Assembly: GCA_949751835.1 (NCBI GenBank)
Contig: CATKHK010000036.1
Location: 1 to 64,000, forward strand
Length of the DNA: 64,000 nt
Origin: Blepharisma japonicum
Lineage: Eukaryota > Ciliophora > Heterotrichea > Heterotrichida > Blepharismidae
Reading direction: 5' to 3'
Within the stretch, counting starts at the first letter, position 1. Each line of letters opens with the position of its first letter. The notes below the pieces were generated by a model. The model made no database searches. It had not been told where the DNA came from and saw only the letters and a program-made list of their open reading frames with translations. The position numbers and the translations under genes were made by a program. Positions 8,355 through 59,134 of this stretch are shown one piece after another.

Positions 8355-9007
8355 CATTTAATATTAAAATATTTTTAAAATAGGGCTTCTTTGGATTTAT
8401 TTTTATTATTATTTTTATTGAAATTTAACTTATGAATGTTATCACATATACTAAAAAATCTTGAATAATTCAAGGAAAATATTAATTGAGAAAAAATAGC
8501 TCAAAATAACTCACCAATTTTAAAATATTGTTTAACTATATTTATAAAAGTAAATTAAATATAGGGAAATAAAGCAATCTTGATCACTCAGGAGGGCTGT
8601 TTGGGTTTCTAACACCATAACACACAAAATGAAAGAGTCTAAATATTGAAAAGAAATCGATAATTATTTTTACTCAAAATCTATATATAAATTAATTTTT
8701 AAAACTACTTTGAAAATTTCACTGGTCTCTTTCTTCATAAATATATTTTTCTCTCCAGAAACCCCTATAGTCAAAATAGAGTAGCTATAAATCATTTGTC
8801 TCTTGGTTGCGATATTTGAAATTTAATGTCTTCTAATTTAGGGAAATATTCAATTATTCATCAAATCAATGCCTGTTCTCTTCTCGCTATGTTAGGATTA
8901 TTTCAAATTTGATATAAGAAAAATATTAGCGGCCTGTTTATTTAATATCAACAAAATCAGTCTCTATTTACAATTCTGATATAAAATTACTTAACAATAT
9001 AATTTAA
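8355..9007. other. AT-rich spacer and 5' flank of the zinc-kelch gene
   Basis: No gene is seen. The last 230 bases (about 8780-9007) are repeated before the paralogue at about 14770-15004, including the string CCTGTTTATTTAATATCAAC. This shared flank probably contains the promoter. The segment 8520-8780 is present only in unit 1. Confidence 0.6.
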
Positions 9008-10975
9008 ATGGAAAGATGCTCTTTTCCTAACTGCAAAGCAAAAGCTTTGCATTATTGCTTATGCAGTCTTTCTAAAATTTTAATTTGTGCCGAACATGTT
9101 CAAGCTCACATGAATGATGAATCCAAATGCCATGCATTAAAAAATATATATGGGAAGCCTAATGCTGGTGCTAAAGATGAAATATTAGAATATATTAAGA
9201 ATGAAAAGGGAAGAGCCGAAGAGTTTGAGAAAAATCTACCGGGAAATCGTTCGAAGAAAAGCAGCTCGGAAGTTAAAATCATGAATCATATTTTATTTCT
9301 TGACAACCTTAAAGAAAAAATTCAAAAAACTGAAAGAATTTCAGAATTCGAAGAAGATGCAGACATCAAATTATTACGGCTGGCCCCTAAAACAGCATTA
9401 AAAAAATTTAAGAAAAGAATTCCAAAGTTGATTGATAAAGAGTTCATCGCTGAAATGTTAAGAATTAATAATATGAAGATAGCAGAAGATAATGATAGAA
9501 ATTTTGGCGAAATAAAATATATGCTTTCTGAAATAAAGTCAGAAATCCAAAATAAATTTATACACATAAATGAAGTTCTTGAAGAACGAATAAATAATTT
9601 CGCACCAATTCCTGAGCAAATAGTAAGAGCTTCCCCAGAGCAAAGCTTTATGTCTTTTCAAGAGAAGGACGAAGCCCTAAGCAAAAGGAATAATATTATA
9701 AAGGATTTGGAATATGATGAAATAAATAAATTAGAGATACTAAAATCAAAAGTGGATAATGCTAACGATGAAGTGAAAAATTTTCCATATTGCACTTGCT
9801 GCGAATATGAAACACTCCAGGGCCGGTTGGAAAACTTAGTGCCTAGAATAGAGAAAATAAAGAAAAAATTTCAAAAAATCAAAATTGCAAGTGAAAATAA
9901 AACAATGTACAAAAACAGCTTTGATGTCAATAATAGCTTTCAAAATCTTGAAAAGCTTTATACCGACCTTCAATTGAATTTTAATCAAATTTTGGAAAAC
10001 ATAAATAATTCCATTGTAAACTGTAAATATTTATTCATAACTGACCAAGATTTTATAAATAGAAAATCAAGACTTACAAAATTAGACACTAGTGCCAATA
10101 AAATTAAGCAAAACTATATAGAAAATATTGGAATTCCGCTGAGCTCTCTAACATGCACAATTCCCTACTCAGATAATGAATTAATATGTATTAATGGGTT
10201 TGTTTGCTTCGGAAACTCAAACTCAGGGTATTCTTGTATTATAGATACTAAAACTAGCCAGGAAACTCAAGCGTTGAGTCCTTTTACACCATCAAAATGA
10301 GTAGGTGGGATTAAATATAAACATGACATTTTTCTCTTTGGTGGAACAGCTGGACCTACTGATGCATGAAAATATAATAACATAGAAAAGAGCTGGAGGC
10401 GCTTAAGTTCCCTCCCTGAGGGTGCTGAAAGATGTTCATGTGATATCTGGAAAGATTCTATTTTAATTTGTGGTACTGGACATAATAGTATCTGGAAATA
10501 TATAATTGCAGAAGATAGATATGAAAAAATAGACGTAGGGAATGAAAATATGCTTAATTCAGATGCCAAAAAAATCTTATTTGTTTCGAAGCAGACCATT
10601 TATTTAATGGAGTGGAGTGGTAGGCTATTCATTAGTGATAGAAATGATGAAACTAAATGGCACATGGTGAGGCGAGATACTTTAGAGAATTTTTATAGAG
10701 CATATAAAAGCTTTCACAACGGAAAAGTGTATATAGGCTTGGTGCTTTATGATGACATAGAAAAGCATGATGCTTTCTACTATTATTGCTTTAACGATGA
10801 GGAGCAAAAACTTGAAAAGATGAATGAGTTGACAGTTCCAGACGATTTTAATAAGTCTTTTCAAGGTTATGGCAAGGAGGCTTTAGGGAAATGGCAAAAA
10901 ATTTATAATAGCATTAAATCACGAGATTTGGGAGCTTCACGAATTGATGTACTAAAATGTGGCAAAAAAGCATAA
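9008..10975 (+). CDS. Zinc-motif, coiled-coil, kelch-like protein (intact copy)
   Basis: 655 residues, ATG to UAA. The Cys/His motif is at C4, C9, C17, C19, C27, H30 and H34. A Lys/Glu-rich helical region runs to about residue 370. There is a possible extra Cys cluster (FPYCTCCEYE) near residue 262. Kelch-like blades fill the rest, with IFLFGGTAGPTDAW, where the Trp is UGA, and SWRRLSSLPEGAERC. UGA codons at 10298 and 10367 lie inside the kelch part. The acidic protein gene starts 96 bases downstream in the same direction. Its paralogue at 15005 is broken. It is probably a cytoplasmic scaffold or adaptor; no enzyme motif is visible. Confidence 0.85.
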
Positions 10976-11071
10976 TTTGAGGTAAGGTTCTCATACGACG
11001 AGTTTTTATACTTGCAATATGGCTATTTGTAAAATATTTTTTATCTAAATCATTAAATAATTAAAAGTATA

Positions 11072-11803
11072 ATGCAAGCAGATATTGAAAATCTTTTAGA
11101 CGAGAGCAAGGATCTTTTGACATCTTGTGCGAAGACTATATATGATAAACTTGCTAGTGAAGGTGTTGTTGAATTTAAAAATAAAAATCATTGGCTTCGT
11201 GCTATCTGTGAAGTCCTGAATCAGCAAAATATTTCAATACTTTATGAAGAATCAAACATAGATGCAATTTTTGACAAGAATTATAAAGAAGGCAATTGGA
11301 GTTTTGATGATTTTTTAAATTCAATAGTAGATATTCTTGGCATGCTACTAAACAAAAGCAAATCAAATGTTCAATTACAAATAGAAAATCCAGAAATTAC
11401 AGAACCAAAAATAAATATAGATGAGACACCTAGCAGCTATAAAGGTATAGAAACTCCTTCGCAAGGAAACTTTGAGTATCAGGAAATATCAAATGAGCCT
11501 TCAAATGTATTTGAAGCAGAGAATTTTGACGAAATTGAAAATCCAGATGAGTTAAAAGCTTCATCATATCAAGATAAAGAAAAGATAAACCAAAATACTG
11601 AGGCTGTAATAAAAATTAAAAAATATCTGGATGATACTGGATTATATTCTGCTTTTCAATTGATTTTCGCTGAAATATTATCAAGGAAAATAGAGCCAAA
11701 TGATGCTTTTTCATATGCTGCTACACGACTCAGGCAAATTGGAAAAGAAGTTTCACATTTGCTGCCTCAAGAATATACAGCAGAAAAAACAATTGAATCA
11801 TAA
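11072..11803 (+). CDS. Acidic protein with Dpy-30/RIIa-like C-terminus, copy 1
   Basis: 243 residues with no in-frame UGA. The first 80 residues look helical, the middle (about 95-170) is acidic and probably disordered (Glu, Pro, Ser, Asn), and the last 55 form two likely helices (TGLYSAFQLIFAEILSRKIEPNDAFSYAATRLRQ region). That end recalls the Dpy-30/RIIa dimerisation motif, in which a Pro-containing turn precedes a Phe-Ala helix, but the match is weak. The gene sits between the zinc-kelch gene and the convergent U-box-kelch locus. Both duplicated copies are intact and nearly identical, unlike their neighbours, which suggests selection or a very recent exchange. Function unknown. Confidence 0.75.
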   Translation: MQADIENLLDESKDLLTSCAKTIYDKLASEGVVEFKNKNHWLRAICEVLNQQNISILYEESNIDAIFDKNYKEGNWSFDDFLNSIVDILGMLLNKSKSNVQLQIENPEITEPKINIDETPSSYKGIETPSQGNFEYQEISNEPSNVFEAENFDEIENPDELKASSYQDKEKINQNTEAVIKIKKYLDDTGLYSAFQLIFAEILSRKIEPNDAFSYAATRLRQIGKEVSHLLPQEYTAEKTIES

Positions 11804-11852
11804 ATTTCTACAAATTTTATGTAAATTTACTATTTATACTTAAAACAGCATT

Positions 11853-13448
11853 TTATAGCATTACTTTTTGAAATTGTTTTTCTTCTAAGTTAAACTTATA
11901 AACCAAGTGTTTCTGATTAAAATCTGAAATGATTCCTACATAAATAGATTCTTGATAGTAAGTCTTATAAGCTTGACTATAGCACATCATTTCTGAGGAG
12001 CCAATATTTTGCCATATTTCTTCATTATCCTCTAAACTCTCATAAATAGATCCTCCCGCTTCTTCAATTGCATAAACCCGAGATTTCCCATAAAACAATA
12101 CCTTATGCTTCCCACGTTTCAGCTCAAGTCCTTGGATTTCTGAATAATAATTTTCATATAAATTAAACTTAAAAATTCTTGCATGCCAATATCCAGTGAC
12201 CAAAATTCGATTTTTATAATTGACACATGAGCAATGAGTTGACGGCTCTGGCATTGATGGCAACTTGGTCCACCTATTTTTCTATTAAATCATATTTTTG
12301 TTCAATGGATAATGAATCATGGTGAATATTAATACCACCAAAAAAATAAACACAATTTTTATGGTAGCATGCTCCAACCCAAAATCGAGGGTCACTCGCT
12401 TCAAGCACTCTCTTAAGGCTCAAGGTCTGAGCGTCAAGAATGCAAGCGATTCCAGAGACAGGACTACAATTTCCGAAGCAAAATAGTTCAGAATTTGGAA
12501 TTTGGATAATACAAGTGCTGCTACTAAGTGGCTCAGGGGTTTCAAGATGTCATGTATCTATTTTTTGTGTGGAAATATCATGTTCTATTAAAAGACCTTC
12601 CCGCCTAGGGAGATCTCGATTTATGAGATATATGGAACGATGGTCATGAATAGAGGTTTCTTCTACTGTTTGAATTAATTCATCAAATTTAGACTTTAAA
12701 TTGGATATTATTCACTCTATTTCATCAGAACTATTTTTCATTCGCAAATCTGGTGATAATGATCCTAAAAGATTTTCAATTAAATTCTCGAGTTTCTTGC
12801 GATAAATATGATATTATTTGAATTGCTCCATTTAGATTGCAATTTTATAGATTCGGGATTTTTGTTTTCTTCAGGATACTCATAAACTCTTTCGTTATTT
12901 TCAAATTTCTAATTCATCCATTAATTCTTTCGATATCTGTTTTTCTTTCATAATTTCTTCTTCTTTTCTATTTTTCATAAATTCTAGCTCTAGCTTTATT
13001 CTTTTTATCTTATCTTTTTTCTTCTTTTTTGCATCTTGCATAGCGAATTCTATATCTTTTATGACTTTTTCTAAAGCAAATATTTTTTCATCTTTTGATT
13101 CTATCTTTTTTTTTAAATTTTGTAAAAAATCTGCATTTTCTCTCATATAATCTTCTATAAGAGAATCTCTGAGCTTCATTATATCGATTTTTACTTTCCC
13201 TTTTGCAAAATCATTTGGAATTTTCTCTCTAAACCTTTTAATCATTGATTTGAGGTGATGATTTTCAATAAGATTTTGGTTTGAAATATGAAGGCCTGTC
13301 ATTGGGCTTGTACATCTTACTTTGTATCAATCCAATATGTTTTGTCGCTCATATGTGTGGCATCAGAAGCAATAACTGGGTCTTCCATTATATCTCAAGA
13401 TATTGGACAACGATAGTCGTCAGGAATATTAATAGTTTCTTCTATCAT
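11853..13448 (-). pseudogene. U-box, coiled-coil, kelch gene, decayed copy
   Basis: This is the unit-1 copy of the intact gene at 17819-19423. It is highly similar throughout but carries several one-base indels: in the U-box near 13348, in the linker near 12905 and 12808, and at the kelch start near 12278. The longest remaining frames are the coiled coil (13302-12901) and the last 136 codons (12263-11853). It starts at the ATG at 13448. It is probably a recent pseudogene, although one-base differences could include assembly errors. Confidence 0.8.
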
Positions 13449-13499
13449 ATATGCATAGATTTCCTGATGCATCTCCTCAACTATTAATTTATTTGAAAT

Positions 13500-14637
13500 A
13501 GCAAGAGCTGCATGCTATAGGTAACCATATGGATTTCTCAGTGACTGAAGGTACCATCAATTAATCGCTTGCCTCGCTATTATCAGTTAGGGAGCCAAAT
13601 CAATTTCACATATTAAATAATATGCCGATTTTTCAATAGAAAATTACTAGACACTGGAATTGCAAGACTAATAGTTTGCTTCATATGGAAATTCATATGA
13701 ATACAAAGTTTTATCACAGGAAATTCGCTTCTGGTAAGTGATTTTTTGATTTCCTGGAATTGTATTTTTGAGATTGCAGTAATAAAATGGTGAATTTGTA
13801 AGATTCACATAAGCCAAGTTGCTTCCTTCAAAATTTGTCCTGAAAAATATACGATTATGGAGAAATGCTCCTTGAACATTAGCATTGCTGAAATCTTTTT
13901 CATAAAATGCATATTGTGATTTGGAGTATAGTGTAATTGAATTAGCTGCTGCTGGGCTAAATCAGGATTATTTCTTGATAATAAAACAATCTGATATAAA
14001 AGATCAATATAGTTGTCAGGCAAATGATTTAGTATATACTTGAAAAGATAAATACTTGGGTGAAGGCTGTGCTGATTTAAATAGCTTGCTTTTGTAAGTT
14101 TATTGCAGCTTTCAATTTCCCTTATCATTTTCTTGCTTATGAACATTGATATAATTCCATGGCTTCAAAAGGATTCAAAATTTAGCAGCCATTTTTCTCA
14201 ATCCATGAGGACTTTTAAGTTTTTATATGCTAAAATTAAAGAATTATTTCCGTCATTTTTATCATTTTTCATTTTTTCTTCATAACAAATTTTTATAGAT
14301 AGTCAGCAACTTGCATTTTTTTCTGATCTAAATTATATTCAATTTTAATTGCTAGAATATTAGTTTAAGTTTCACAGTCTTTGCGATTTCCTCTTCTAGG
14401 TAATCTCTGACTTTCCAATTCCTTTTGTTTTATTGAATATATTGTGTAAATTTTATTAATGACTGAAATTTCATCATCCAGGTAAAAATAAATCAATTAC
14501 TTTGGGATGAATTAATTCCAAAATGGAATCTATTTCAAGGATGTGATTGATAAGATGGACTTTGCAGTACGCTTTAGATTTGCAAGAGCAAGAATAAGAT
14601 GGCTTCATTTGATTTAGGCATCCCTTTTGAGAACAAT
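13500..14637 (-). pseudogene. Relic of zinc, pentapeptide and WD40 repeat gene, copy 2
   Basis: This copy matches 7254-8354. Its start keeps a readable Cys/His motif (CSQKGC, CSCK, CKVHLINH near 14637-14550). The helical segment (14146-13960) and the pentapeptide segment (about 13880-13730) are split over different frames. The WD40 part is mostly missing, because the unit begins at 13500. It is a non-functional host-gene relic. Confidence 0.7.
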
Positions 14638-15004
14638 TCACTTAATATTAAAATATTTTTAAAATGGGGCTTCTTTGGATTTATTTTTAATATTATCTTT
14701 ATTGAAATTTAACTTTATGAATGCTAAGAAAAAATAGCTCAAAATAACTCACCAATTTTTAAAATATTGTTTAGTAGCGATAAATCATTTATGCCTTGGT
14801 TGCAATATTTGAAATTTAATGTCTTATAATATTTCGGGAAATATTCAATTATTTATCAAATCAATGCCTATTCTCTTTCTCGCTATGTAGCAATTATTTC
14901 AAATTTGATATAAGAAAAATATTAGCGACCTGTTTATTTAATATCAACAATATCAGTCATCTATTTACAATTTTGATATAAAATTACTTAACAATATAAT
15001 TTAA
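14638..15004. other. Spacer and 5' flank of the second zinc-kelch copy
   Basis: AT-rich and shared with the flank upstream of 9008, apart from the missing block. No gene is seen. Confidence 0.6.
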
Positions 15005-16920
15005 ATGGAGAGATGCTCTTTTCCTAACTGCAAAGCAAAAGCTATGCTTTTTTGTGCCGAACATGCTCAAGCTCACATGAATGAGGAATCCAAATGTCAT
15101 GCATTAAAAAATTTATATGGGAAGCCTAATACTGATGCTAAAGATGAAATATTAGAATATATTAAGAACGAAAAGGGATGAGTCGAAAAGCTTGAGAAAA
15201 ATATACTGGGAAATCGTTCGAAGAAAAGCAGCTTGGAAGTTAAAATCATGAATCATATTTTATTTCTTGACAACCTTAAAGAAAAATTTCAAAAAACTGA
15301 AATAATTTCAGAATTCGAAGAAGATGCAGTCATCAAATTATTACAGCTGACTCCTAAAACAGCATTAAAAAAATTTAAGAAAAGAATTCCAAAGTTGATT
15401 GATATAGAGTTCATCGCTGAAATGATAAGAATTAATAATAAGAAGATAGCAAAAGATAATGATAGAAAGTTTGGTGAATTAGAAAATAAGCTTTCTGAAA
15501 TGAATTCAAAAATCGAAAATATTTTTATACACGTAAATGAAGTTCATGAAGAACGAATAAATAATTTCGCACCAATTTCTGAACAAATAGTAAGAGCTTT
15601 CCCAGAGCAAAGCTTTATATCTTTTCAAGAGAACAACGAAGATTTAAGAAAAGGGAATAATATGATAAAGGATTTGGAATATGATGAAATAACTAAATTA
15701 GATAAACTAAAATCAAAAGTGGATAGTGCTAACTATGAAGTGCAAAATTTTCCATATTGCAAATGCTGCGAATATGAAACACTCCAAAGCCGGTTGGAAA
15801 ACTTAGTGCCTAGAATAGAGAAAATAAAGAAAAAATTTCAAAAAATCAAAATTGCAAGTGAAAATAAAACATTATACAAAAATAGCGATGATGTCATTGA
15901 TAGCTTTCAAAATCTTGAAAAGCCTTATATCGATCTCCAATTGAATTTTAATCAAATTTTGGTAAACATAAATAATTCCACTGTGAACTGTAAATATTTA
16001 TTCATAACTGACCAAGATTTTACAAATGACAAAACAAGACTTACAAAATTAGACACTAGTGCCAATAAAATTAAGCAAAACTATATAGAAAATATTAGAA
16101 TTCCGCTGAGCTCTCTAACATGCACAATTCCCTACTCAGATAATGAATTAATATGTATTAATGGGTTTTTTAACTTCGGATACTCAAACTCAGGGTATTC
16201 TTGTATTATAGATACGAAAACTAACCAGGAAGCTCAAGCGTTGAGTCCTTTTACACCATCAAAATGAGTAGGTGGGGTTAAATATAAACATGACATTTTT
16301 CTCTTTGGTGGAACAGCTGGACCTACTGATGCATGAAAATATAATAACATAGAAAAGAGCTGGAGGCGCTTAAGTTCCCTCCCTGAGGGTGCTGAAAGAT
16401 GTTCATGTGATATCTGGAAAGATTCTATTTTAATTTGTGGTACTGGACATAATAGTATCTGAAAATATATAATTGAAGAAGATAGATATGAAAAAATAGA
16501 CGTAGGGAATGAAAATATGCTTAATTCAGATGCCAAAAAAACTTATTTGTTTCAAAGCAGACCATTTATTTAATGGAGTGGAGTGGTAGGCTATTCATTA
16601 GTGATAGAAATGATGAAACTAAATGGCATATGGTGAGCCGGGATACTTTAGAGAATTTTTATAGAGCATATAAAAGCTTTCACAACGGAAAAGTGTATAT
16701 AGGCTTGTTGCTTTATGATGGCATAGCAAAGTATGATGCTTTCTACTATTATTGCTTTAATGATGAGGAGCAAAAATTTGAAAAGATGAATGAGTTGATA
16801 GTCCCAGACGATTTTAATAAGTCTTTTCAAGATTATGGCAAGAAGGTTTTAGGGAAATTGCAAAAAATTTATAATCCCATTAATTACAACTTTTGCGAAC
16901 TTCATGAATTGATGTGCTAA
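15005..16920 (+). pseudogene. Zinc-motif, coiled-coil, kelch gene, damaged copy
   Basis: This is the paralogue of the gene at 9008. The ATG at 15005 leads into an open frame with UGA-Trp at 15179. A 30-base in-frame deletion near 15046 removes the central Cys-x-Cys of the zinc motif. Near 16540 one base is missing from AAAAAAATC, so the frame ends at UAA 16570-16572, about two thirds of the way through the kelch part. The rest continues in another frame to 16920, with a changed C-terminus. TGA at 16460 aligns with TGG at 10493. The truncated product (about 520 residues) could still be made, but loss of the Cys pair and kelch blades suggests decay. Confidence 0.8.
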
Positions 16921-17037
16921 AATGTGGCAAAAAAGCATAATTTGATGTAACGTTCTCGTGCGGCGAGTTTTTATACTTGCAATATGAGTTATTTATAATA
17001 TGTTTTTTATCTAAACCATTAAATAATTAAAAATATA

Positions 17038-17769
17038 ATGCAAGTAGATATTGAAAATCTTTTAGAAGAGAACAATGATCTTTTGACATCTTGTGCGAAG
17101 ACTATATATGATAAATTTGCTAGTGAAGGTACTGTTGAATTTAAAAATAAAAATTATTGGCTTCGTGCTATCTGTGAAGTCCTGAATCAGCAAAATATTT
17201 CAATACTTTATGAAGAATCAAACATAGATGCAATTTTTGACAAGAATTATAAAGAAGGCAATTGGAGTTTTGATGATTTTTTAAATTCAATAGTAGATAT
17301 TCTTAGCATGCTACTAAATAAAAGCAAATCAAATGCTCAATTGGAAATAGAAAATCCAGAAATTACAGAACCAAAAATAAATATAGATGAGACACCTAGC
17401 AGCTATCAAGGGATAGAAACTCCTTCGCAAGGAAACTTTGAGTATCAAGAAATATCAAATGAGCCTTCAAATGTATTTGAAGCAGAAAATTTTGACGAAA
17501 TTGAAAATCCAGATGAGTTAAAAGCTTCATCGTCTCAAGATAAAGAAAAGATAAGCCAAAATACTGAGGCTGTAATAAAAATTAAAAAATATCTGGATGA
17601 TACTGGATTATATTCTGCTTTTCAATTGATTTTCGCTGAAATATTATCAAAGAAAATAGAGCCAAATGATGCTTTTTCATATGCTGCTGCACGGCTCAGG
17701 CAAATTGGAAAAGAAATTTCACATTTGTTGCCTCAAGAATATACAGCAGAAAAAACAATTGAATCATAA
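17038..17769 (+). CDS. Acidic protein with Dpy-30/RIIa-like C-terminus, copy 2
   Basis: 243 residues, exactly the length of copy 1 (11072-11803), with about a dozen substitutions and no indels. It has the same layout: helical N-terminus, acidic Ser/Pro/Glu middle, and two-helix C-terminus with the IEPNDAFSYAA turn. It lies between a broken zinc-kelch copy and the intact convergent U-box-kelch gene, whose stop is only about 50 bases away. Function unknown. Confidence 0.75.
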   Translation: MQVDIENLLEENNDLLTSCAKTIYDKFASEGTVEFKNKNYWLRAICEVLNQQNISILYEESNIDAIFDKNYKEGNWSFDDFLNSIVDILSMLLNKSKSNAQLEIENPEITEPKINIDETPSSYQGIETPSQGNFEYQEISNEPSNVFEAENFDEIENPDELKASSSQDKEKISQNTEAVIKIKKYLDDTGLYSAFQLIFAEILSKKIEPNDAFSYAAARLRQIGKEISHLLPQEYTAEKTIES

Positions 17770-17818
17770 ATTTCTACAAATTTTATTTAAATTGACAATT
17801 TAAAATTAAAATAGCATT

Positions 17819-19423
17819 TTATAGCATTACTTTTTGAAACTGTTTTTCTTCTAAGTTAAACTTATAAACCAAGTGTTTCTGATTAAAATCTGAAATAATT
17901 CCTACATAAATAGATCCTTGATAGTAAGTCTTATAAGCTTGACTATAGCACATCATTTCTGAGGAGCCAATATTTTGCCATATTTCTTCATTATCCTCTA
18001 AACTCTCATAAATAGATCCTCCCGCTTCTTCAATTGTATAAACTCGAGATTTCCCATAAAACAATACCTTATGCTTCCCACGTTTCAGCTCAAGTCCTTG
18101 GATTTCTGAATAATAATTCTCATAAAAATTAAACTTAAAAATTCTTGCATGCCAATATCCAGTCACCAAAATTCGATTTTTATAATTAACACATGAGCAA
18201 TGAGTTGACGGCTCTGGCATTGATGGCAACTTAGTCCACCTATTTTCTATTAAATCATATTTTTGTGTAATGGATAATGAATCATGATGAATATTAATAC
18301 CACCAAAAACATAAACACAATTTTTATAGTAGCATGCTCCAACCCAAAATCGAGGGTCGCTCGCTTCAAGCACTCTCTTTAGGCTCAAGGTCTGAGCGTC
18401 AAGAATGCAAGCGATTCCAGAGACAGGACTACAATTTCCGAAGCAAAATAGTTCAGAATTTGGAATTTGGATAATACAAGTGCTGCTACTAAGTGGCTCA
18501 GGGGTTTCAAGATGCCATGCATCTATTTTTTGTGTGGAAATATTATGCTCTATTAAAAGACCTTCCCGCCTAGGGAGATCTCGATTTATGAGGTATATGG
18601 AACGATGGTCATGAATAGAGGTTTCTTCTACAGTTTGAATTAATTCATCAAATTTAAACTTTAAATTGGATATTATTCAGTCTATTTCATCAGAAATATT
18701 TTTCATTCGCAAATCTGGTGATAATGATCCTAAAAGATTTTCAATTAAATTCTCGAGTTTCTTACGATAAATATGGATATTATTTGAATTCCTCCATTTA
18801 GATTGCAATTTTATAGATTCGGGATTTTTATTTTCTTCAGGATACTCATAAACTCTTTCATTTATTTTCAAATTTTCTAATTCATCCATTAATTCTTGTG
18901 ATCTCTGTTTTTCTTTCATAATTTCTTCTTCTTTTCTATTTTTCATAAATTCTAGCTCTAGCTTTAACCTTTTTATCTTATCTTTTTTCTTCTTTTTCGC
19001 ATTTTGCATAGCGATTTCTATATCTTTTATGCCTTTTTCTAAAGCAAATATTTTTTCATCTTTTGATTCTATCTTTTCTTTTAAATTTTGTAAAAAATCT
19101 GCATTTTCTCTCATATAATCTTCTATAAGAGCATCTCTGAGCTTCATTATATCGATTTTTACTTTCCCTTTTGCAAAATCATTTGGAATTTTCTCTCTAA
19201 ACCTTTTAATCATTGATTTGAGGTGATGATTTTCAATAAGATTTTGGTTTGAAATATGAAGGCCTGTCATTGGGCTTGTACATCTTACTTTGTATCAATC
19301 CAATATGTTTTGTCGCTCATATGTGTGGCCATCAGAAGCAATAACTGGGTCTTCCATTATATCTCAAGATATCGGGCAACGATAGTCGTCAGGAATATTA
19401 ATAGTTTCTTCTACCATATACAT
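17819..19423 (-). CDS. U-box, coiled-coil, kelch protein (intact copy)
   Basis: 534 residues, UAA stop. Residues about 8-70 form a U-box: IPDDYRCPISWDIMEDPVIA, then SDGHTYERQNILDWY, then SPMTG and NLIENHHLKSMI. The Trp after ILD is conserved in U-boxes and is UGA here. A Lys/Glu coiled coil runs over about residues 95-195. The C-terminal half has kelch-like blades (CVYVFGGI, NRWTKLPSMPEPSTHC, SIYESLEDNEEIW). U-boxes recruit E2 enzymes, so a single-chain E3 ubiquitin ligase with a kelch substrate-binding head is the natural inference. A second in-frame ATG lies two codons after the first (19417). The unit-1 copy (11853-13448) is broken. Confidence 0.88.
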
Positions 19424-49109: not shown

Positions 49110-49676
49110 ATGTCATTCATTATCCTATATGAGTATTGAAGTTTTCTCTAGGTATTAATCCTTTAGCAATTAGTGTGAATAAAGTTTTTATGTTGACTCC
49201 TGTTTTAGCGCTAACTTCAATATAATAAACTCCTGATTCTCGCTTTGTCAGCTGCTTCTTGTCATGTGAAACATCTTTCTTCAATTTTGTCAGCTTTATT
49301 CCCCACCAGCATGATAATTATATCAGTCCCTAATTGATTTTTGATATGCTCAATCCACCAGCCAGCATAGTTAAGAGTTTGTCTATTTGTCACATCAATG
49401 ACGATAATTACTGCTGAAGGAGAATCACTAATATAGTATGGGATTGAACCCCTAAATACTTTTTGACCTGTATCTCAAATCTCAAGACACACACTCCTAT
49501 TATCAATATGAAGCGTCTTGAATTTAAAATCAGCCCCAATCGAGGGTTGATAATTATTATAAAAAGTTTCAAACATAAATCTTCTAAAAATAGAACTCTT
49601 TCCTGCGTGACCATCGCCTAATAGGACAAACTTGTATTTTACTCATTGAATCACAGATTTCAGCTCTTTGTTGCCA
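49110..49676 (-). pseudogene. Rab6-like GTPase relic
   Basis: Reads as GTPase with P-loop GDGHAGKSS, switch region WDTGQKVFRGSIPYYI (Trp by UGA), NKAD and SAKTG. The expected ATG is out of frame with the coding part, and one frameshift lies near 49240, before the SAK box. The array's inserted segment is absent from this copy. Confidence 0.75.
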
Positions 49677-49809
49677 TTTATATTGGACAAACTTTAACTA
49701 ATTATGCTTCTACATATGATTCTTTAATATTATTATAAGATTCTTTTTTAAGACCCTGTCTTTTAATAGCTTATAAAAGAGCACATAATCTGGGTTTCAT
49801 ATTGCTCAC

Positions 49810-50410
49810 TACTCCACTTTGAAGTTTTTTTAAGTTTGAGGTTTCTCTGGCTATTAATTCTCCAGCAACTATTATGAATAAACTTTTTATGTTGAATCCT
49901 GTTTTAGCGCAAACTTAAATATAATAAGCTCCTAATTTCGTTGCTTTAGCAACTGCCTCTTCTGAAGTGACACATCTTTCTTCAACTTGATCAACTTTAT
50001 TCCCAACCAATATGATGGTTACATCAGCTCCACCTCCTTTTTGACATTTTCAAGTCACCACAAAGCAAATCTAATAGTTAGTCTGTTTGTCAAACCAAAG
50101 ACAACAATTACTGCTGAAGAATCTCTAACATAGGTATTAGTGACGAAATTAAGGTAATTTTTTGATTTTATTAAGCCTCCATATAATTTTGAACTCACGT
50201 TTGTATCTCAAATCTGAATATGCACATTTATATCATCAAGATAAAGGGTTTTAAGCAAAAACCAATTCCAAATGTTGGAAGTATTTACTACTAAAAGCTT
50301 CAAACACAAATTTGGTAATAATCGAAGTCTTTTCCTACTTCTCGCCAGCCTAAAAAATGAAAATTGTATTTTGCTGTTGGGCCAATGGCATTCAGCTTTT
50401 CTGTTTCCAT
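49810..50410 (-). pseudogene. Rab6-like GTPase relic with insert remnant
   Basis: The start METEKLNAIGPT is followed by a degraded P-loop, stops and frame changes. NKVDQVEERCVTSEEA is readable near the end. Between the switch II region and VRDSSAVIVV-type sequence lies a roughly 60-bp segment containing TAATAAAATCAAAAAATTACC, matching part of the insert seen in neighbouring copies. Confidence 0.7.
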
Positions 50411-51455: not shown

Positions 51456-52019
51456 TTACACCAGTTTAAGTTTGAGGTTTTCTCTAGCTGCTAATTCTCA
51501 AGCAACTACTGTAAATAAAGTTTTTATGTTTAGTCCTGTTTTAGCACTAACTTCCATATAATAAGCTCCTCATTCTCTTGCCTTGGCAGCTGCTTCTTCT
51601 GAAGTTACACATCTTTCTTTAACTTTGTCAACTTTATTCCCCACCAATATGATAATTATATCAGTTCTTCCACATAAGTTGACTTCTTCAATAAATCCAT
51701 GGGCTCTGTTAAGAGTTTGTCTGTTTGTCACATCAATGGCAATAATTACTGCTGAAGAATCTCTAATTCCATATATGAGATAGGACTCTCCATCTTCTCA
51801 ACTTATCATTTCGTCCAATATATGAAGACTCACATTTCTACCACCAAGATGAAACGTTTTTCTTGGGAAATCAAGCCCAATATTATCTATATATCTATTA
51901 TCAAAAATTCCAAACGCAAATTTGGTAGCAATAGAAGTCTTTCCTACGGGTCCAGCGCCTAAAACTAAAAGCTTATAATTTGTTGTTGGGCTTGCAGAGT
52001 TCAAATCTTCTGTTTCCAT
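51456..52019 (-). CDS. Rab6-like GTPase with degenerate switch II
   Basis: 187 residues, UAA stop, with UGA-Trp at three places. The P-loop is GAGPVGKTS and the G4 box NKVDKVKERCVTSEEA; the G5 box is SAKTG. The usual WDTAGQ is replaced by LDEMISWEDGE, so the catalytic Gln and the G3 Gly are missing. No C-terminal Cys for prenylation. It may bind nucleotide but should hydrolyse poorly. The next copy (52243) is divergent, 223 bases away. Confidence 0.75.
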
Positions 52020-52242
52020 TTATTATCCAACAAATTTAACTAATTATGCTTTTTCGAATGATTTATGATTTTATAAAAAGATTCTTCTTTAAATATATAA
52101 AAATTATTTTGGAGGTTTATCATAACTGATAAAAATGCATTAGGAGAATATTTAAAATAAGGATGGGATAAATAGCAATTTTAAATAAAATTAAATTAAA
52201 TTAAAAATAAAAGCATAATTAGCTAAATTTGTTCAGAAATAA

Positions 52243-52935
52243 ATGGAAACGAAAGAGCTGAACCCTGAGGGTCAAATAGTCAAACTCAAGCTTGTGTTTT
52301 TAGGCGATGCGCAAGTAGGAAAGACTTCGATTCTTGCTCAATATGCCTTTGAAACCTTCGATAGTAATTATCAAGCCTCGATTGGAGTTGATTTTATATC
52401 TAAAAGATTCCATTATGATGATATGACTATACTTCTTCAATTTTGGGATACATCAGGTCAAAAAAGATTTAGAAGTTTAATTCCAAGCTATACTAGCGGT
52501 TTTATTAAATTCGAAGAATAAGTAATTTTTGCATTAATTTTATGCAATCATATTATTTCCTATAAGTAAATAAAAAACTGTTTTAAATAGTTCACTTCTC
52601 CCTATATTAGAAATACTTTAGCAGCAGTTATTGTCTTTGATGTGACGAATAGACAAAGTTTTGACAGTGCTGATGAATGAATTGAAATGGTCAAAAATGA
52701 AAGTGGAACTGATATAATCATTGGATTGGTGGGGAATAAAGTTGATCAAGTTGAAGAAAGATGTGTTACCTCAGAAGAAGCAGCTGCCAAAGCAAGTGAA
52801 AAAGGAGCTATGTATATTGAGGTTAGTGCTAAAACAGGAGGAAACATAAAAACTTTATTCGCACTAATTGCTGGAGGATTCGCAGCCAGAGAAAAACTTA
52901 GGTTTCAAAGTGAGGAAATAAGTGCTCCTTCCTAG
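52243..52935 (+). CDS. Rab6-like GTPase interrupted by a 114-bp insert
   Basis: Begins METKELN and keeps P-loop GDAQVGKTS, FWDTSGQKRFRSLIPSY, NKVDQVEERCVTSEEAAAKA and SAKTGGN, ending at UAG. After IPSY the frame enters an AT-rich segment and meets UAA at 52519. Dropping 114 bases between two CTATA copies gives IPSY-IRNTLAAVIVFDVTNRQ, as in uninterrupted paralogues, and a protein of 192 residues. UGA at 52678-52680 aligns with TGG at 58865-58867. No C-terminal prenylation Cys. It retains the G3 Gly and Gln that most intact copies here lack. Unless the insert is removed from DNA or RNA, only about 92 residues would be made. Confidence 0.75.
52493..52606 (+). other. IES-like insert in a GTPase gene (114 bp)
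   Basis: An AT-rich segment between direct repeats CTATA (52488-52492 and 52602-52606). Excision of one repeat plus the segment restores the frame exactly. Candidate GT...AG pairs inside would leave extra bases out of frame, so a standard intron fits less well. Similar inserts lie in three other copies of the array. Confidence 0.6.
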
Positions 52936-53100
52936 CACGAATTATAAGGAAATAATGATAGCTAACTAATATTATTAAGTGTTTATATCTAAAGAGCATC
53001 AATATAAAAAATGTATCTTTACAACTATATTTAAAGAAGAATCTTTTTATAATATTAAAAAAACATTTGCAAAAGCATAATTAAATTTGTTCAATCATAA

Positions 53101-53545
53101 ATGACAATAAAAGAGCTTAACTCTGTAAGCCCAACAGCAAATTGCAAGCTTTTGTTTTTAGGCTATCCGTACTTGGGAAAGACTTCTATTATTACCAAAA
53201 TTTGTGTTCGAAACTTTAAATAATGATGACGAATCCTTATGAAGGACATCAGCATCCAAAACTCTTCATCTTGTTAATAGGAGTGTATGTCTTCAGATTA
53301 AGGATACAAAAAATATTCAAGTTCATGACGGACATGAGTTCACGCCATTATTATATTCGAGATTTGTTAATTTCCAAGAATAAGTGATTTTATACTAATT
53401 TTATTTATATAGCAACATTGTCTTATATCTCTTAATAAAATCAAAAATTTGCCTTAAGTATAGAAATTCTTAAGCAGTAATTATTGTCTTTGATGTGACG
53501 AATAAAGAAACTCTTACGATGCTTCACGGTGGATTATAGATGCCC
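53101..53545 (+). pseudogene. Rab6-like GTPase relic
   Basis: The start MTIKELNSVSPTANCKLLFL and a P-loop-like GYPYLGKTS are readable, then the frame breaks by codon 40. Insert-like sequence (GTTAATTTCCAAGAATAAGTG) follows near 53366. The mirror copy is at 56995-57295. Confidence 0.75.
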
Positions 53546-53553
53546 ATGAATAT

Positions 53554-54205
53554 CTAAGAATTGATGCAGTCAAAATATTGATGGAGAATAAAAGCTGATA
53601 AAGTTGTAAAAAGATCTATCTCGCCAGGTAGATCTATAGCTTCCTCTAGTGAATTAAATTCGCCAAATATCGCATACCTTAAGTATGGCGAAAAATGGAC
53701 CTCTATCCTTTCCGGCCCAGCCTGCATAATATTATCCATCTCTACACCAACTACTTAACATTTTTCTCCAATCTTCTCCAGTACTTCCTCAAGTGCCACT
53801 CCTGCAGATATGTCAATCCTTAATTTGATATCTCGTGCAATTTATTCCCCTTCCTCGGAAGTCAACTCCCATCGGCACTATTAGCTTTTTCCCATTGTAG
53901 TTTGCAATGATTCCTCCCCTTCTTACTAGTTCCTCCCTTGTCTTCCGATTAATCAATGTGACTATAGCATCTCCTGATGGAAATCTCGTACATTTCAAGA
54001 TTAATGCTGCATATAAGTTCTTCTTTTCCTCCAAACAATTTTTACCTGTAAATTATAATAGGTAGATTTTGACAGTTTCAATTTCCCTATTTTTAGGTAG
54101 CTCGTCATATGGTGCTTAATAGCCATAGAAAAGTCTAATTCCCAACAACTTCTTTTCGTCCTGAGCAGCCCTTATTGGTTTTCTTTCGTTCTCCATCTTC
54201 GCTTC
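53554..54205 (-). pseudogene. Broken ORF of foreign-looking composition
   Basis: Fragments with an unusually high content of G and codons such as GGA, AGG and CCG. They include an RRM-like or DUF4283-like layout (TLINRKTREELVRRGG, then GVDFRGRG, then EEVLEKIGEKC and VGVEMDNI). This resembles the nucleic-acid-binding ORF of retroelements, but the match is weak and no reverse transcriptase is nearby. The copy is broken in several places. It lies in the loop of the inverted repeat. Confidence 0.4.
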
Positions 54206-55029
54206 AAAAAAAAGTGGAAGCAACATATATCACTTATATAAAATTGAATAATTAAAATTATCATATTTTCTGTGAAATAGATAGCTAAGTGAAAATTAAA
54301 TCTCAAAACTAAAGATAGGGTAATAATGGGTGAAATGAAAACTGGAATAGGACTTTCTTTATATCACAAAACCAGTATAAAAAGTGCCAAATGCAAGTTT
54401 ATATTATTAAACGCTTATATTTAAATTATCCTTATAATAAATGCATCTTTACAACTATACTTAAATTGTAAATTTTGATAATTTTATGAAAACATTAATT
54501 TTTTCTCATCCTTAGTTGAATAGCCTATCTTTATTTAGCTATTCCACCAGATAATCAACGTTGTAGGAATAACCTTGGGTTCTAGTCCTTGAAACTTAAA
54601 AGATTTTTGGGCTATTCACTCAGCACTTCCAAGAAGGTAGACCACTAAGTTAGAGCACAAGCTAAATATGAGCCAGATGAGAGTCAAGGTAGTGAGCGAG
54701 GCTTTTGCCTAGAGCTTTTGGTAACAATGATGGAGTGCTTGCTAGAAATTATACGAAAGCATCCATGACATCACTAGTTTTGAATTAAGCCATTTTTGCT
54801 ATTTCATGAATTTATTGTCGACTAAGGTTTTTCTAAGTTAAACTTTTGTCCTAAATATATATAAGGGACGCTAGACTCCTTTCTCAAATTCCAAATTAGG
54901 TCATTGCCTTGAATTAAGGGATGATAAACTTCCAACACAATTAATATATATTTATAGGAGAATATTTTTATAATACTACAACATCATTTGTGAAAGCATA
55001 ATTAATAAATTTGTTCGATAATAAATACA
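54206..55029. other. Spacer with a GC-richer unassigned island
   Basis: Positions 54500-54960 look coding-like in more than one + strand frame when stops are read through, so no frame can be trusted. No tRNA fold was found. The last 60 bases are the shared 5' flank of the GTPase copies (AAGCATAATTA). Confidence 0.4.
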
Positions 55030-55587
55030 ATGGAAGGGCTAAACTCTTTGAGCTCAACAACAAAATGCAAACTTGCTTTCTTAGGCTATGGAAATGTGGG
55101 AAAAACTTCTATTATTACCAAATTTGTCTTAGGAACTATTAATGATTATTACGAGCCTACAAGGGAGATGTATCCTTGATTCAAAACGCTTTATTTTGAT
55201 GATCGAAATGTGGATCTTCAGATTTGAGATACAAGCACGCGTTCAAGAATATTTTCCAGCTTAATACCATCATATATTCGATATTCTTCAGCAGTAATTA
55301 TTGTTATTGATGTTACAGACAGACAAGCTCTTAGCAATGCTGATAGATGGATAAAAGCTGTCAAAACTTGTAGGGGCACTGATGCAATCATCATATTGGT
55401 AGGAAATAAAGCTGAAAAAGTAAAAGAAAGACGTTTCACGTTAGAAGAAGCAGCTGCTAGAGCAAAAGAGTGAGAAGTTTATTATATTGAAGTTAGCGCT
55501 AAAACAGGAGTCAACATAACAAGTTTATTTGCACTTGTTACTTGAGGATCAACAGCCAGAAAAAACCTCAAACTTCAGATGGACTAA
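55030..55587 (+). CDS. Rab6-like GTPase with altered switch II
   Basis: 185 residues from MEGLNSLSSTTKCKL to UAA. The P-loop is GYGNVGKTS. UGA codons give Trp at MYPWF, at the invariant G3 Trp (QIWDTS), at AKEWEV and at VTWGS. The G3 box reads WDTSTRS instead of WDTAGQE, losing Gly and Gln. G4 is NKAEKVKER, where the usual NKxD Asp is Glu, and G5 is SAKTG. No C-terminal Cys. The frame is intact but nucleotide binding and hydrolysis are probably weakened. No insert is present. Confidence 0.75.
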
Positions 55588-56098
55588 TGAGCGATATGAA
55601 AGCTGGATTAAGCGATATTACAGTTAATAAATATTAATTTTTCTCTAATTTGTACACTTCATTTTTATTTATAAATTCCATGAGTTTCTCCGCATTGGAT
55701 TCTTTCTAGGCACAAAATCAGTATAAAAATGTGAATGCTCGCTAATATTATTTACGTTGATATCTAATTATCATCTTTATAAAAATCATTTTTATAAATA
55801 TATTGCTTTCCCTTAAAGAGGGAAATAATTTGCTTTTTCCTCACAATCAAAATCCGCCATCAAGCAAATTAGGAGCTCATTAATTATCAAACACTTTATT
55901 TTTAAATAATAAATTTCAGCTCAATAGTCGATTAAAAAGTAAATGATTAAAAAATAAGTTATATAAGGGTTAAAAACTATCTAATACAAAAGAATATCGA
56001 AAATTAAAAAATTCCATAGCCTTTTTCTTCGGACTTTGAATTGATTTCTCTTAATTTTAGAATAAGTGAGACGATCTAATTATAAACTAAATTTCTAA
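55588..56098. other. AT-rich convergent spacer
   Basis: No gene is seen between the GTPase and the Cys-rich gene. Confidence 0.5.
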
Positions 56099-56974
56099 TT
56101 AAGGAGATGCATTAGAACCACAACTCTCGCATTTCTCAACATTATTATCCCTCATTTCTTTTGCACAGCTTCCACAAACAAAGCAACCCTTTTCACAAAG
56201 CTCTTTGGTGTCATCTGCCCTCTTACATCTAATACATCTCACTTCTTTTCCTGCAGGTGGTGGGACATCAACTGGTTTGTCTAGTGTACTCAAAGCTATT
56301 TTGAGGGTACATCTTAACTCCACCGAATATTTATTTTCACATCCAATCCTCGGACACTTCAAGCTATAAAAATCATTCAGATTATTAATGCAATGCTGTC
56401 TTGTGCAGGAATCACACACATTGCAGCAGCCTTCAGACCTGGTCAGCGAGAAATCAATATCGTCTTGTCCTTTATTGCAGACTGGACAAGTCTTATAGGT
56501 ATCATTTAATTTAGTGATCGCTACAGAAATGTCTGATTTTTCTCTTTCAAAGGTTTGCTTGCCATGCTGGCATCTTTCCTTGTTAAAAAGAAAATCTCTA
56601 ATGCATTCTCCACAGTGGTCTTCTTTGCAAGCGTTGAGCTTGTAGTATTTAGGCTTAGATCTATGCTCAGCGACATTGTGGACTAATTGAAGAATTTCGG
56701 GAGGGATTTCTTCAGTTCGGTCAAGCTGCTTTATGCGGCTTAAGATTATTTCTTTGCCTTTTTGTCCAATTTGAATGTTGTTTTCAAGAGTAAATTTGGA
56801 TAAATAAATGGTGAAATTTTTGAATGCTTCTTTGCCTGCGTGAAGGTTAGTGGGGTTTGCTTGGGATTTGATTGGGGCTGGGGGAACCTTGGCATCTTCT
56901 TCACCGGTTTTTAAGATTTCTTGTAGTTTTCCAGGGCCGTATAAGAAATTGGACATGTTTTCATGTGCTTTCAT
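56099..56974 (-). CDS. Cys-rich RING/RBR-like zinc protein
   Basis: 291 residues with no in-frame UGA and UAA as stop. The N-terminal 110 residues lack motifs. Then come three Cys/His clusters: CKEDHCGECIRDFLF; CPVCNKG with CCNVCDSCTRQHC and LKCPRIGC; CIRCKRA with CFVCGSC and CESCGS. The spacing suggests linked RING-type modules as in RBR or RING ubiquitin ligases, but no subfamily is certain. It lies in the loop of the inverted repeat, and its ATG is only about 30 bases from the inner edge of the right arm, so its upstream region comes from a GTPase relic. Confidence 0.7.
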   Translation of the reverse strand: MKAHENMSNFLYGPGKLQEILKTGEEDAKVPPAPIKSQANPTNLHAGKEAFKNFTIYLSKFTLENNIQIGQKGKEIILSRIKQLDRTEEIPPEILQLVHNVAEHRSKPKYYKLNACKEDHCGECIRDFLFNKERCQHGKQTFEREKSDISVAITKLNDTYKTCPVCNKGQDDIDFSLTRSEGCCNVCDSCTRQHCINNLNDFYSLKCPRIGCENKYSVELRCTLKIALSTLDKPVDVPPPAGKEVRCIRCKRADDTKELCEKGCFVCGSCAKEMRDNNVEKCESCGSNASP

Positions 56975-56994
56975 AATTCTATAAATTTAATATT

Positions 56995-57295
56995 TCAGTA
57001 AATAAAATCACATATTCTTGGAAATTAACAAATCTCGAATATAATAATAGCGTGAACTCAGTGTCCGTCATGAGCTTGAATATTTTTTGTATCCTTAATC
57101 TGAAGACATACACTCCTATTAACAAGATGAAGAGTTTTGGATGCTGATGTCCTTCATAAGGATTCGTCATCATTATTTAAAGTTTCGAACACAAATTTTG
57201 GTAATAATAGAAGTCTTTCCCAAGTACGGATAGCCTAAAAACAAAAGTTTGCAATTTGCTGTTGGGCTTACAGAGTTAAGCTCTTTTATTGTCAT
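56995..57295 (-). pseudogene. Rab6-like GTPase relic, mirror copy
   Basis: Nearly identical, in inverted orientation, to the relic at 53101, including its frame breaks (MTIKELNSVSPTANCKLLFL, then a broken frame). This shows the duplication came after decay, or that gene conversion has kept the two alike. Confidence 0.8.
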
Positions 57296-57446
57296 TTATT
57301 ATTGAAAAAATTTAATTATGCTTTTGCAAATGTTTTTTTAATATTATAAAAAGATTCTTCTTTAAATATAATTGTAAAGATACGTTTTTTATAGTGATGC
57401 TATTTAGATATAGCACTTAATAATATTAGTTAGCTATCATTATTTC

Positions 57447-58152
57447 TTATAATTCCTGCTGGGAAGGAGCACCTATTTCCTCACTTTGAAACCTAAGTTT
57501 TTCTCTGGCTGCGAATCCTCCAGCTATTAGTGCGAATAAAGTTTTTATGTTTCCTCCTGTTTTAGCACTAACCTCAATATACATAGCTCCCATTTCACTT
57601 GCTTTGGCAGCTGCTTCTTCTGAGGTAACATATCTTTCTTCAACTTGATCAACTTTATTCCCCACCAATACTATTACTACACCAGCTCCTATTTCATCTT
57701 TGACCATTTCAATCCATTCATCAGCACTATCAAAACTTTGTCTATTCGTCAAATCAAAGACAATAACTGCTGCAAAAAAATTTCTAATATAAGGAGGAGC
57801 AAAATACTTAAAGCAGTTTTCTATTTTACTTATAGGAAATAATGTGATTGCATAAAATTAATGTAAAAATTGTTAATTCTTCGAAATTAATAAAACCCCT
57901 AATACGGCCTCGAATAAAATTCCAAACTCTTTTTTGACCTGATATATCCCAAAGATAAAGAAGTATAGCCATATCATCATAATTGAATCTTTTAGATATA
58001 GAATCAATACCAATCGAGGCTTGATAATTGCTATTGAAGGTTCCACTCACATATTGAGCAATAATAGAAGTCTTTCCTACTTGTACATCGCCTAAAAACA
58101 CAAGCCTGAGTTTGACTATTGAAGCCTTTGGGTTCAACTCTTTAGTCTCCAT
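57447..58152 (-). CDS. Rab6-like GTPase interrupted by a 115-bp insert
   Basis: Begins METKELNPKASIVKLRL, P-loop GDVQVGKTS, then LYLWDISGQKRVWNFI. The frame then enters the insert and stops. Beyond it the gene resumes (FDLTNRQSFDSADEWIEMVK, NKVDQVEER, SAKTGGN, ending SQQEL). The two halves differ in frame by one, and removing exactly 115 bases between the TATTAG repeats restores a single frame. Switch II is RVWNFI where the other arm has RFRSLI, so it has diverged. It may be decaying, or functional only after insert removal. Confidence 0.65.
57790..57904 (-). other. IES-like insert in a GTPase gene (115 bp)
   Basis: Flanked by direct repeats of TATTAG (+ strand CTAATA at 57784-57789 and 57899-57904). 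It is homologous to the insert at 52493-52606 over most of its length (GTTTTATTAA(A)TTCGAAGAAT). Excision repairs the frame of the host gene. Confidence 0.6.
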
Positions 58153-58193
58153 TTATTTCTAAACAAATTTAGCTAATTATGCTTTTATTTTTT

Positions 58194-58549
58194 ATTTAAT
58201 TTTAAGTTATATGTCACGTTTAAATAATAATATTTTATTTTACAACGCGAAGAAAGAATGTGAGAGAATATTTTTTAAAATGGTTTTAACAATGCTTTAA
58301 TTAGTTTAATTTTAGAGTTTAAGTTGCTTTAAATTTTTTCCTAATTAATTATAATCTTTATATATACTATATTTACCATTCCGAATTTCTAAATGATTTT
58401 TATACTCAAGCTACATCTTGCAATTAAGACTTAATATATTTTTAATCTTAAACTTCCAACATCATTTTTATATATTTAAAGAATCTTTTTGCAATATTAA
58501 AATCATTTTTGGAAGCATAATTAGTTAAATCTGTCCAATAATAAATAGA
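58194..58549. other. AT-rich spacer
   Basis: No gene is seen. The last 50 bases hold the AAGCATAATTAGTTAAATCTG-like 5' flank shared by the GTPase copies. Confidence 0.5.
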
Positions 58550-59134
58550 ATGGAAGATCTAAACTCTGCAGCCCAGAAAGTCAAATGCAAGTTTGTGATT
58601 TTAGGCAATGCGCAAGTAGGAAAGTCTTCTATTCTTGCCCAATTTGTGCATGAAACTTTCGATAGTAATTATCGACCCTCAATTGGAGTTGAATTTATAT
58701 CCAAAAAACTTTATCGTGATGGTGTGACTGTGCTTTTTGAGCTTTGGGATACATCAAGCAATGAAAGATTTAGGAGTTTAATCCCAAGATATATTAGAAA
58801 TACTGTAGCAGCAGCTATTGTCTTTGATGTGACGAATAGACAAAGTTTTGACAGTGCTGATGAATGGATTGAAATGGTCAAAGATGAAACAGGAGCTGGT
58901 GAAGTCATAGTATTGGTGGGGAATAAAGTTGATCAAGTTGAAGAAAGATGTGTCACTTCAGAAGAAGCAGCTGCCAAAGCAAGTGAAAAAGGAGCTATGT
59001 ATATTGAGGTTAGTGCTAAAACAGGAGGAAACATAAAATCTTTATTCGCACTAATAGCTGAAGGATTAGCAGCCAAAGAAAACCCTAGGCCTCAAAGTGA
59101 GGAAACAAGTGCTCCTACCCAGCAGGAAATATAA
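58550..59134 (+). CDS. Rab6-like GTPase, uninterrupted copy
   Basis: 194 residues, UAA stop. The P-loop is GNAQVGKSS and the effector region SNYRPSIGVEFISKKL. Switch II is ELWDTSSNERFRSLIPRYIRNTVAAAIVFD, where the usual AGQ is SSN, so the catalytic Gln is Asn. G4 is NKVD and G5 is SAKTGGN. SLIPxYIRxxxxA is typical of Rab6. No C-terminal Cys, so normal Rab prenylation is not expected. It is the cleanest member of the array and the reference for defining the inserts in the other copies. Confidence 0.82.
   Translation: MEDLNSAAQKVKCKFVILGNAQVGKSSILAQFVHETFDSNYRPSIGVEFISKKLYRDGVTVLFELWDTSSNERFRSLIPRYIRNTVAAAIVFDVTNRQSFDSADEWIEMVKDETGAGEVIVLVGNKVDQVEERCVTSEEAAAKASEKGAMYIEVSAKTGGNIKSLFALIAEGLAAKENPRPQSEETSAPTQQEI

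What the first reader, a model, noticed from the sequence alone, without database searches (positions are those of the whole stretch)
52488..57904. IES-like inserts in two mirrored GTPase genes
The segments at 52493-52606 (114 bp) and 57790-57904 (115 bp) lie between short TA-containing direct repeats. Removing exactly one repeat plus the segment restores the Rab frame in both, even though one length is a multiple of three and the other is not. Relics at about 50150 and 53366 carry related sequence, while four other copies lack it. This is what retained internal eliminated sequences would look like in a macronuclear chromosome.
Basis: partly seen in the sequence, partly recalled or inferred. 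Interest (0 to 1): 0.72.

Follow-up and report, generated by a model that had tools for sequence, protein, structure and literature searches.

The report
Leftover insert in decaying ciliate GTPases
Two copies of a Rab6-like gene in what looks like a ciliate's working (somatic) genome carry the same old stretch of just over 100 non-coding bases between short TA-containing repeats; it looks like germline DNA that should have been cut out but stayed, and the two copies inherited it from one ancestor and are probably dying genes.

Summary
Observation confirmed. In a Blepharisma-like macronuclear contig (CCCTAACA telomere, TGA=Trp), Rab6-like copies A (52243+) and B (58152-) each hold 105-109 AT-rich bases between TA-containing direct repeats (CTATA; TATTAG). 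Taking out 114 or 115 bases gives the uninterrupted frame. Exact TA repeats this long are unlikely by chance (P 0.005, 0.0017). It is no ordinary intron: 20 of 20 TAG-bearing Rab genes fetched have 15-nt GTA..TAG introns, and no GT/GC-AG intron with the same boundaries in A and B restores the frame.

A and B are arms of one inverted duplication: one insertion, not two. Related sequence survives in D, G and M; the eight other copies examined lack it. Carriers are not a clade (AU p 0.0004), so it was lost precisely or moved by gene conversion. Nothing here shows excision: no insert-free A or B in the assembly, no terminal inverted repeats, and A and B evolve almost neutrally (omega 0.66 against 0.02 for true Rab6). 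Best reading: an ancient IES-like insertion retained in a decaying, rearranging cluster. Germline reads would decide.

The parts
52243..52487 (+). copy A, Rab6-like reading frame before the insert
   Evidence: open under TGA=W; aligned with C, J, K
52488..52496 (+). left direct repeat of A (CTATACTAG; exact core CTATA)
52497..52601 (+). insert of A, 105 nt, 22% G+C, stops in frame
52602..52610 (+). right direct repeat of A (CTATATTAG)
52611..52935 (+). copy A, rest of the frame with its TAG stop
57905..58152 (-). copy B, frame before the insert
57899..57904 (-). left direct repeat of B (TATTAG)
57790..57898 (-). insert of B, 86.7% identical to that of A over 105 columns
57784..57789 (-). right direct repeat of B (TATTAG)
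57447..57783 (-). copy B, rest of the frame with its TAA stop
53352..53463 (+). related insert in relic D with its repeats (TATATTCGA / GTATAG)
   Evidence: 70.3% identity to A insert over 91 columns; blastn E 2e-5 for a 43-column stretch in the window
50125..50175 (-). 3' part of the insert and right repeat (TATGTTAG) in relic G
   Evidence: 70.9% to D over 55 columns, 60.6% to A over 66; 91% over 23 nt to D at 50153-50175
57002..57055 (-). relic M, mirror of D; the duplication arm ends about 33 nt past the left repeat
   Evidence: 96% identity to the D side over 54 bases
58550..59134 (+). copy C, uninterrupted, closest relative of A and B
   Evidence: 194-aa ORF, Ras/Rab6
55030..55587 (+). 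copy E, uninterrupted, open
51456..52019 (-). copy F, uninterrupted, open
49117..49677 (-). copy H, uninterrupted, frame broken

Best explanation
One ancestral Rab6-like copy took in just over 100 bp of AT-rich, non-coding DNA with duplication of a TATATTAG-like site, most probably an IES or IES-like element. It is now retained in the somatic sequence of copies A, B and relics D, G, M. Segmental (inverted) duplication carried it to A and B together. Its absence from C, E, F and H reflects precise loss or replacement by gene conversion. In the retained state A and B cannot make a full-length GTPase, and they are drifting towards the state of D and G. Shown: the insert, its repeats, its homology across copies, the inverted duplication, near-neutral amino-acid change. 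Inferred: IES origin, loss of excision, and how other copies came to lack it.
For: Telomere CCCTAACA and TGA=Trp fit a Blepharisma-type macronuclear contig (PMC9942806 passages). TA-containing repeats beyond chance, and none at 5 control indels. About three quarters of B. stoltei IESs are TA-bound and the short class spans about 65-115 bp (PMC9942856). A genome search with the A insert matched A and B only, with the D insert D and M only. Insert identity (A-D 70%, D-G 71%, A-G 61%) is like that of the host copies for the same pairs (62-75%), so it is old. A,B,D,G as one clade is rejected: AU p 0.0004; A,B,C,D,G p 0.001; A,B,D,G with C left out p 0.002. A-B omega 0.66 is not different from 1 (p 0.20), against 0.02 for Rab6 J-K. 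Precise IES loss (17), recruitment into exon (6), gain by conversion (1) and deletion of the region (23) are reported among 64 Paramecium quartet groups (PMC3464196 passages).
Against: No terminal inverted repeats (P 0.93, 0.90, 0.74). G+C of the inserts is 22-24%, below the 33% reported for B. stoltei IESs. The A and B flanks show no indel beside 57 substitutions, against 4 indels beside 35 in the other stretches of the same duplication (Fisher p 0.025), which hints that the frame was still guarded after the insert was present. Copies without the insert evolve as loosely (A-C 0.71, B-C 0.90, E-F 0.60), so the insert is not clearly what relaxed A and B. The genome search did not find D or G from the A insert, so divergent relatives elsewhere would be missed. 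Nothing available shows the germline state.
Confidence: 0.5

Rival explanations
1. The insert is an ordinary non-IES insertion (degraded MITE, repair filler) in a decaying cluster; the direct repeat is a target-site duplication of about 8 bp or microhomology.
For: Repeat reconstructs to about 8 bp (TATATTAG), longer than the TA/TAT/TATA most common at Blepharisma IESs; the cluster changes near-neutrally at the amino-acid level; insert very AT-rich.
Against: No inverted ends; no relatives elsewhere at the sensitivity; TA-centred repeat; precise absence from relatives of carriers.
Confidence: 0.25
2. The insert is a working IES that is excised from a good part of the macronuclear copies (or removed from RNA by an unusual route), so A and B are live genes and the assembly shows the retained form.
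For: Flanks open in both copies; no indels beside 57 substitutions (Fisher p 0.025); over 195 codons the only stop is a TAG near the C-terminus of A.
Against: No insert-free copy of A or B among the 19 matches; omega 0.66 for A-B not different from 1; 2.0 stops expected under neutrality with P(0) 0.16, so open flanks are weak evidence; B departs from its relatives in a run of residues just before the insert (switch II by recalled naming).
Confidence: 0.15
3. A spliceosomal intron, gained early in the family and lost from several copies.
For: Non-coding, AT-rich, between coding parts; the right repeat ends in AG.
Against: 20 of 20 TAG-bearing Rab genes fetched have 15-nt GTA..TAG introns; no removal that restores the exact frame starts with GT or GC (sequence); GT/GC-AG removals of 10-200 nt that leave an open frame number 2 in A and 6 in B, two donors are shared but with different acceptors, and none restores the Rab sequence in both; no 15-16-nt GT..AG lies inside the insert.
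Confidence: 0.04

Closest known systems
Blepharisma stoltei internal eliminated sequences (PMC9942856)
   Same: TA-containing direct repeats, intragenic, non-coding, length near the upper end of the short class
   Different: present in the macronuclear assembly; no inverted ends; 22-24% G+C against 33%; excision not shown
Paramecium IES gain, loss and recruitment into exons among paralogues (PMC3464196)
   Same: same-site presence in some paralogues, precise absence in others, and recruitment into the exon are described there
   Different: there germline sequence identified the IESs; here a tandem/inverted cluster with signs of conversion, and no germline data
15-nt spliceosomal introns of this genome (15-16 bp in B. 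stoltei, PMC9942806)
   Same: interrupt Rab genes
   Different: the insert is about seven times longer and has no GT-AG boundaries that restore the frame

Membership tests
Blepharisma IES | absent from (excised in) the macronuclear genome | tested here: not met
   present in a contig with a CCCTAACA telomere; no insert-free copy of A or B among the matches. Tested on the assembly only; reads not available.
Blepharisma IES | TA-containing terminal direct repeats | tested here: met
   CTATA (A), TATTAG (B); P 0.005 and 0.0017
Blepharisma IES | length in the short periodic class (about 65-115 bp, main peaks at 72 and 110) | tested here: inconclusive
   114 and 115 bp lie at the upper edge, off the 110 peak
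Blepharisma IES | terminal inverted repeats (common, heterogeneous) | tested here: not met
   local scores 5, 5, 6 for A, B, D; P 0.93, 0.90, 0.74
Blepharisma IES | 24-nt developmental small RNAs; presence in germline reads | not testable with these tools
   no reads held
spliceosomal intron of this genome | 15-16 nt, GT..AG | tested here: not met
transposon or MITE | inverted ends | tested here: not met
transposon or MITE | dispersed copies | tested here: inconclusive
   matches only in this cluster, but the search did not even find D or G from the A insert
Rab6 GTPase (host gene) | sequence relationship to Rab6 | tested here: met
   copy C: Rab-6A 4dkx E 8.3e-48; the best 11 solved chains are Rab6 or Ypt6; Pfam Ras for C, E, F

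The most novel reading that the evidence does not exclude
The same ancestral IES still sits in the germline copies of C, E, F or H and is excised there, while in A, B, D and G excision has been lost: a natural series of neighbouring paralogues with one IES in excised and retained states, so that the cis sequence that decides excision could be read off by comparison.
Probability: 0.15. Interest if true: 0.6.

Novelty: new member of a known kind. Interest (0 to 1): 0.36.

Why it matters
If it is a failed IES, it is a small natural experiment on what makes a heterotrich excise or keep a segment, with retained, partly deleted and insert-free copies side by side. If not, it is a warning that TA-bounded inserts in somatic assemblies, especially duplicated ones, are not evidence of editing. 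Either way A and B are one event, not two.

Tried and rejected
Spliceosomal intron (enumeration; 15-nt introns in 20 of 20 fetched genes). Transposon ends (no inverted repeats). Dispersed repeat (genome searches with the A and D inserts found only A/B and D/M; limited sensitivity, since A did not find D or G). Independent double insertion (inverted duplication). Purifying selection on A and B: not detected (NG86 0.72 overall, 1.16 and 0.80 for the two parts; ML 0.66 overall, 0.67 and 0.66; neutral simulation). The J-K fit on the 5' part alone did not converge sensibly and the K-L and J-L distances are saturated; I use J-K over the whole length. Another TA-bounded indel in the 7-19 kb tandem duplication: 5 indels of >=8 bp, none TA-bounded; the global alignment of part of it went wrong at the start, and I judged that stretch by eye from the printed sequence. 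Reading the insert as coding: stops in frame in both. All frame counts assume TGA=Trp with TAA and TAG as stops.

Literature: four searches (open-licence PMC papers only). I saw no report of this locus in the titles they listed (20, 10, 10 and 8 rows). I saw an outline, passages and sections 6 and 7 of PMC9942856, and passages only of PMC9942806 and PMC3464196; no supplements.

Full report
What the window is. The window is the first 64 kb of contig C36 (425,952 bp) of a 45.2-Mb, 224-contig genome. It opens with CCCTAACA repeats, and its longest frames appear when TGA is read as Trp. B. stoltei has these two traits and predominantly 15-16 bp introns (PMC9942806, passages). I therefore take it as a Blepharisma-like macronuclear contig; the species is not established and the assembly is larger than the 41 Mb published for B. 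stoltei.

The genes. Positions 49-59 kb hold a cluster of Rab6-like copies. Copy C matches Rab6 and Ypt6 structures best. DNA searches of the genome with A and E and with the D insert give 13 copies or fragments, a lower bound: A, B, C, D, E, F, G, H and M in the window, I at C36:96 kb, J on C104, K on C31, L on C9. Five of 13 (A, B, D, G, M) hold the insert or part of it; eight do not. More distant Rabs found by protein search were not examined for it, apart from the 20 fetched.

The insert. Its repeats are CTATA in A and TATTAG in B, and the uninterrupted relatives C, H, J and K show TATATTAG once at that place. Random insertion gives TA-containing exact repeats that long in 0.5% and 0.17% of trials. 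The insert is 22-24% G+C against 36% in the A frame, has no inverted ends, and stops the frame.

One event, not two. A and B are arms of an inverted duplication, 52185-53393 against 57002-58210. Divergence is uneven along it: 36 of 245 columns in the first coding part, 18 of 123 over insert and repeats, 21 of 321 in the second coding part, 9 of 168 downstream of it, 4 of 292 in the D/M part, so conversion has probably touched it. The 114 against 115 difference is a single-base indel.

Distribution. On flanking sequence alone, A, B and C group with 98-100% bootstrap support and D and G lie outside that group, on forks that are mostly unresolved. The tree rejects A,B,D,G as one clade (AU p 0.0004; 5' part 0.0001; 3' part 1.5e-8), also A,B,C,D,G (0.001; parts 0.009 and 0.041) and A,B,D,G without C (0.002; parts 0.010 and 0.014). 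D+G alone and E+F+H alone are not rejected. So there was more than one change: precise loss in several copies, or transfer by conversion. Inserts differ between copies about as much as their genes do, which speaks for age rather than recent transfer; a 43-column stretch near the 5' end is 81% alike in A and D, more than their genes (62-64%).

Selection. Pairwise codon ML gives omega 0.66 for A-B, 0.71 A-C, 0.90 B-C (none different from 1), 0.60 E-F (p 0.04), against 0.02 for J-K and 0.04 for K-L. In a neutral simulation the synonymous share of changed codons between A and B is as observed (0.22 against 0.195, P 0.32), 2.0 stops are expected and P(0) is 0.16. Against plain neutrality: 0 indels beside 57 coding substitutions versus 4 beside 35 in the other stretches (p 0.025), and C, E and F stay open where 4.7-4.8 stops would be expected per pair (P 0.004-0.007). 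The cluster is therefore a set of fast-evolving copies, some open (C, E, F), some broken (D, G, H), with A and B open but for the insert and the slightly early stop in A.

Not an ordinary intron. One search lists 26 Rab-like matches with a TAG, one of them A; of the other 25 I fetched 20. In 20 of 20 a 15-nt GTA..TAG segment removes the stop and restores the Rab sequence. They were chosen for the TAG, so they do not estimate how many genes have other introns. No GT/GC-AG removal with the same boundaries in A and B restores the frame.

Verdict. By anatomy this is what a failed IES would look like: TA-bounded, non-coding, precisely absent from relatives, present in the somatic sequence. It cannot be filed as an IES, because the defining feature, elimination from the macronucleus, is not met in the assembly and could not be tested on reads. 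Paramecium shows the same kinds of events among paralogues (17 precise losses, 6 recruitments into exon, 1 gain by conversion and 23 deletions of the region among 64 groups; PMC3464196 passages), so the case is a likely new member of a known kind and moderately interesting.

Noticed in passing
G000 C104:18632-19184 (L021): Rab6 copy J has an in-frame TAA where K has CAG, although J-K are under strong constraint (omega 0.02): a recent nonsense change, or an assembly or somatic variant.
   Followed up: partly
53393 and 57002: The inverted duplication (D/M side) ends about 33 nt inside the insert, 28 nt upstream of the ORF that starts at 56974: the insert is also a rearrangement breakpoint.
   Followed up: no
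52185-53393 vs 57002-58210: Divergence between the arms rises from 4 of 292 columns (D/M) to 36 of 245 (5' part of A/B): gene conversion or uneven ages.
   Followed up: partly
7252-13250 and 13499-19215: 6-kb tandem duplication, 94.5% identical, with indels of 246, 47, 30, 22 and 12 bp; the 30-bp one lies near the start of the ORF at 9008.
   Followed up: partly
Rab genes on other contigs (L026-L045): 20 of 20 fetched TAG-bearing Rab genes have a 15-nt GTA..TAG intron, mostly at the same few places (after GVDF-like sequence, before or within WDTAGQE).
   Followed up: partly
51456-59134: C, E and F keep open frames while amino-acid change is nearly free (omega 0.58-0.90 among pairs tested, except 0.36 for E-J): fast-evolving rather than plainly dead.
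   Followed up: partly
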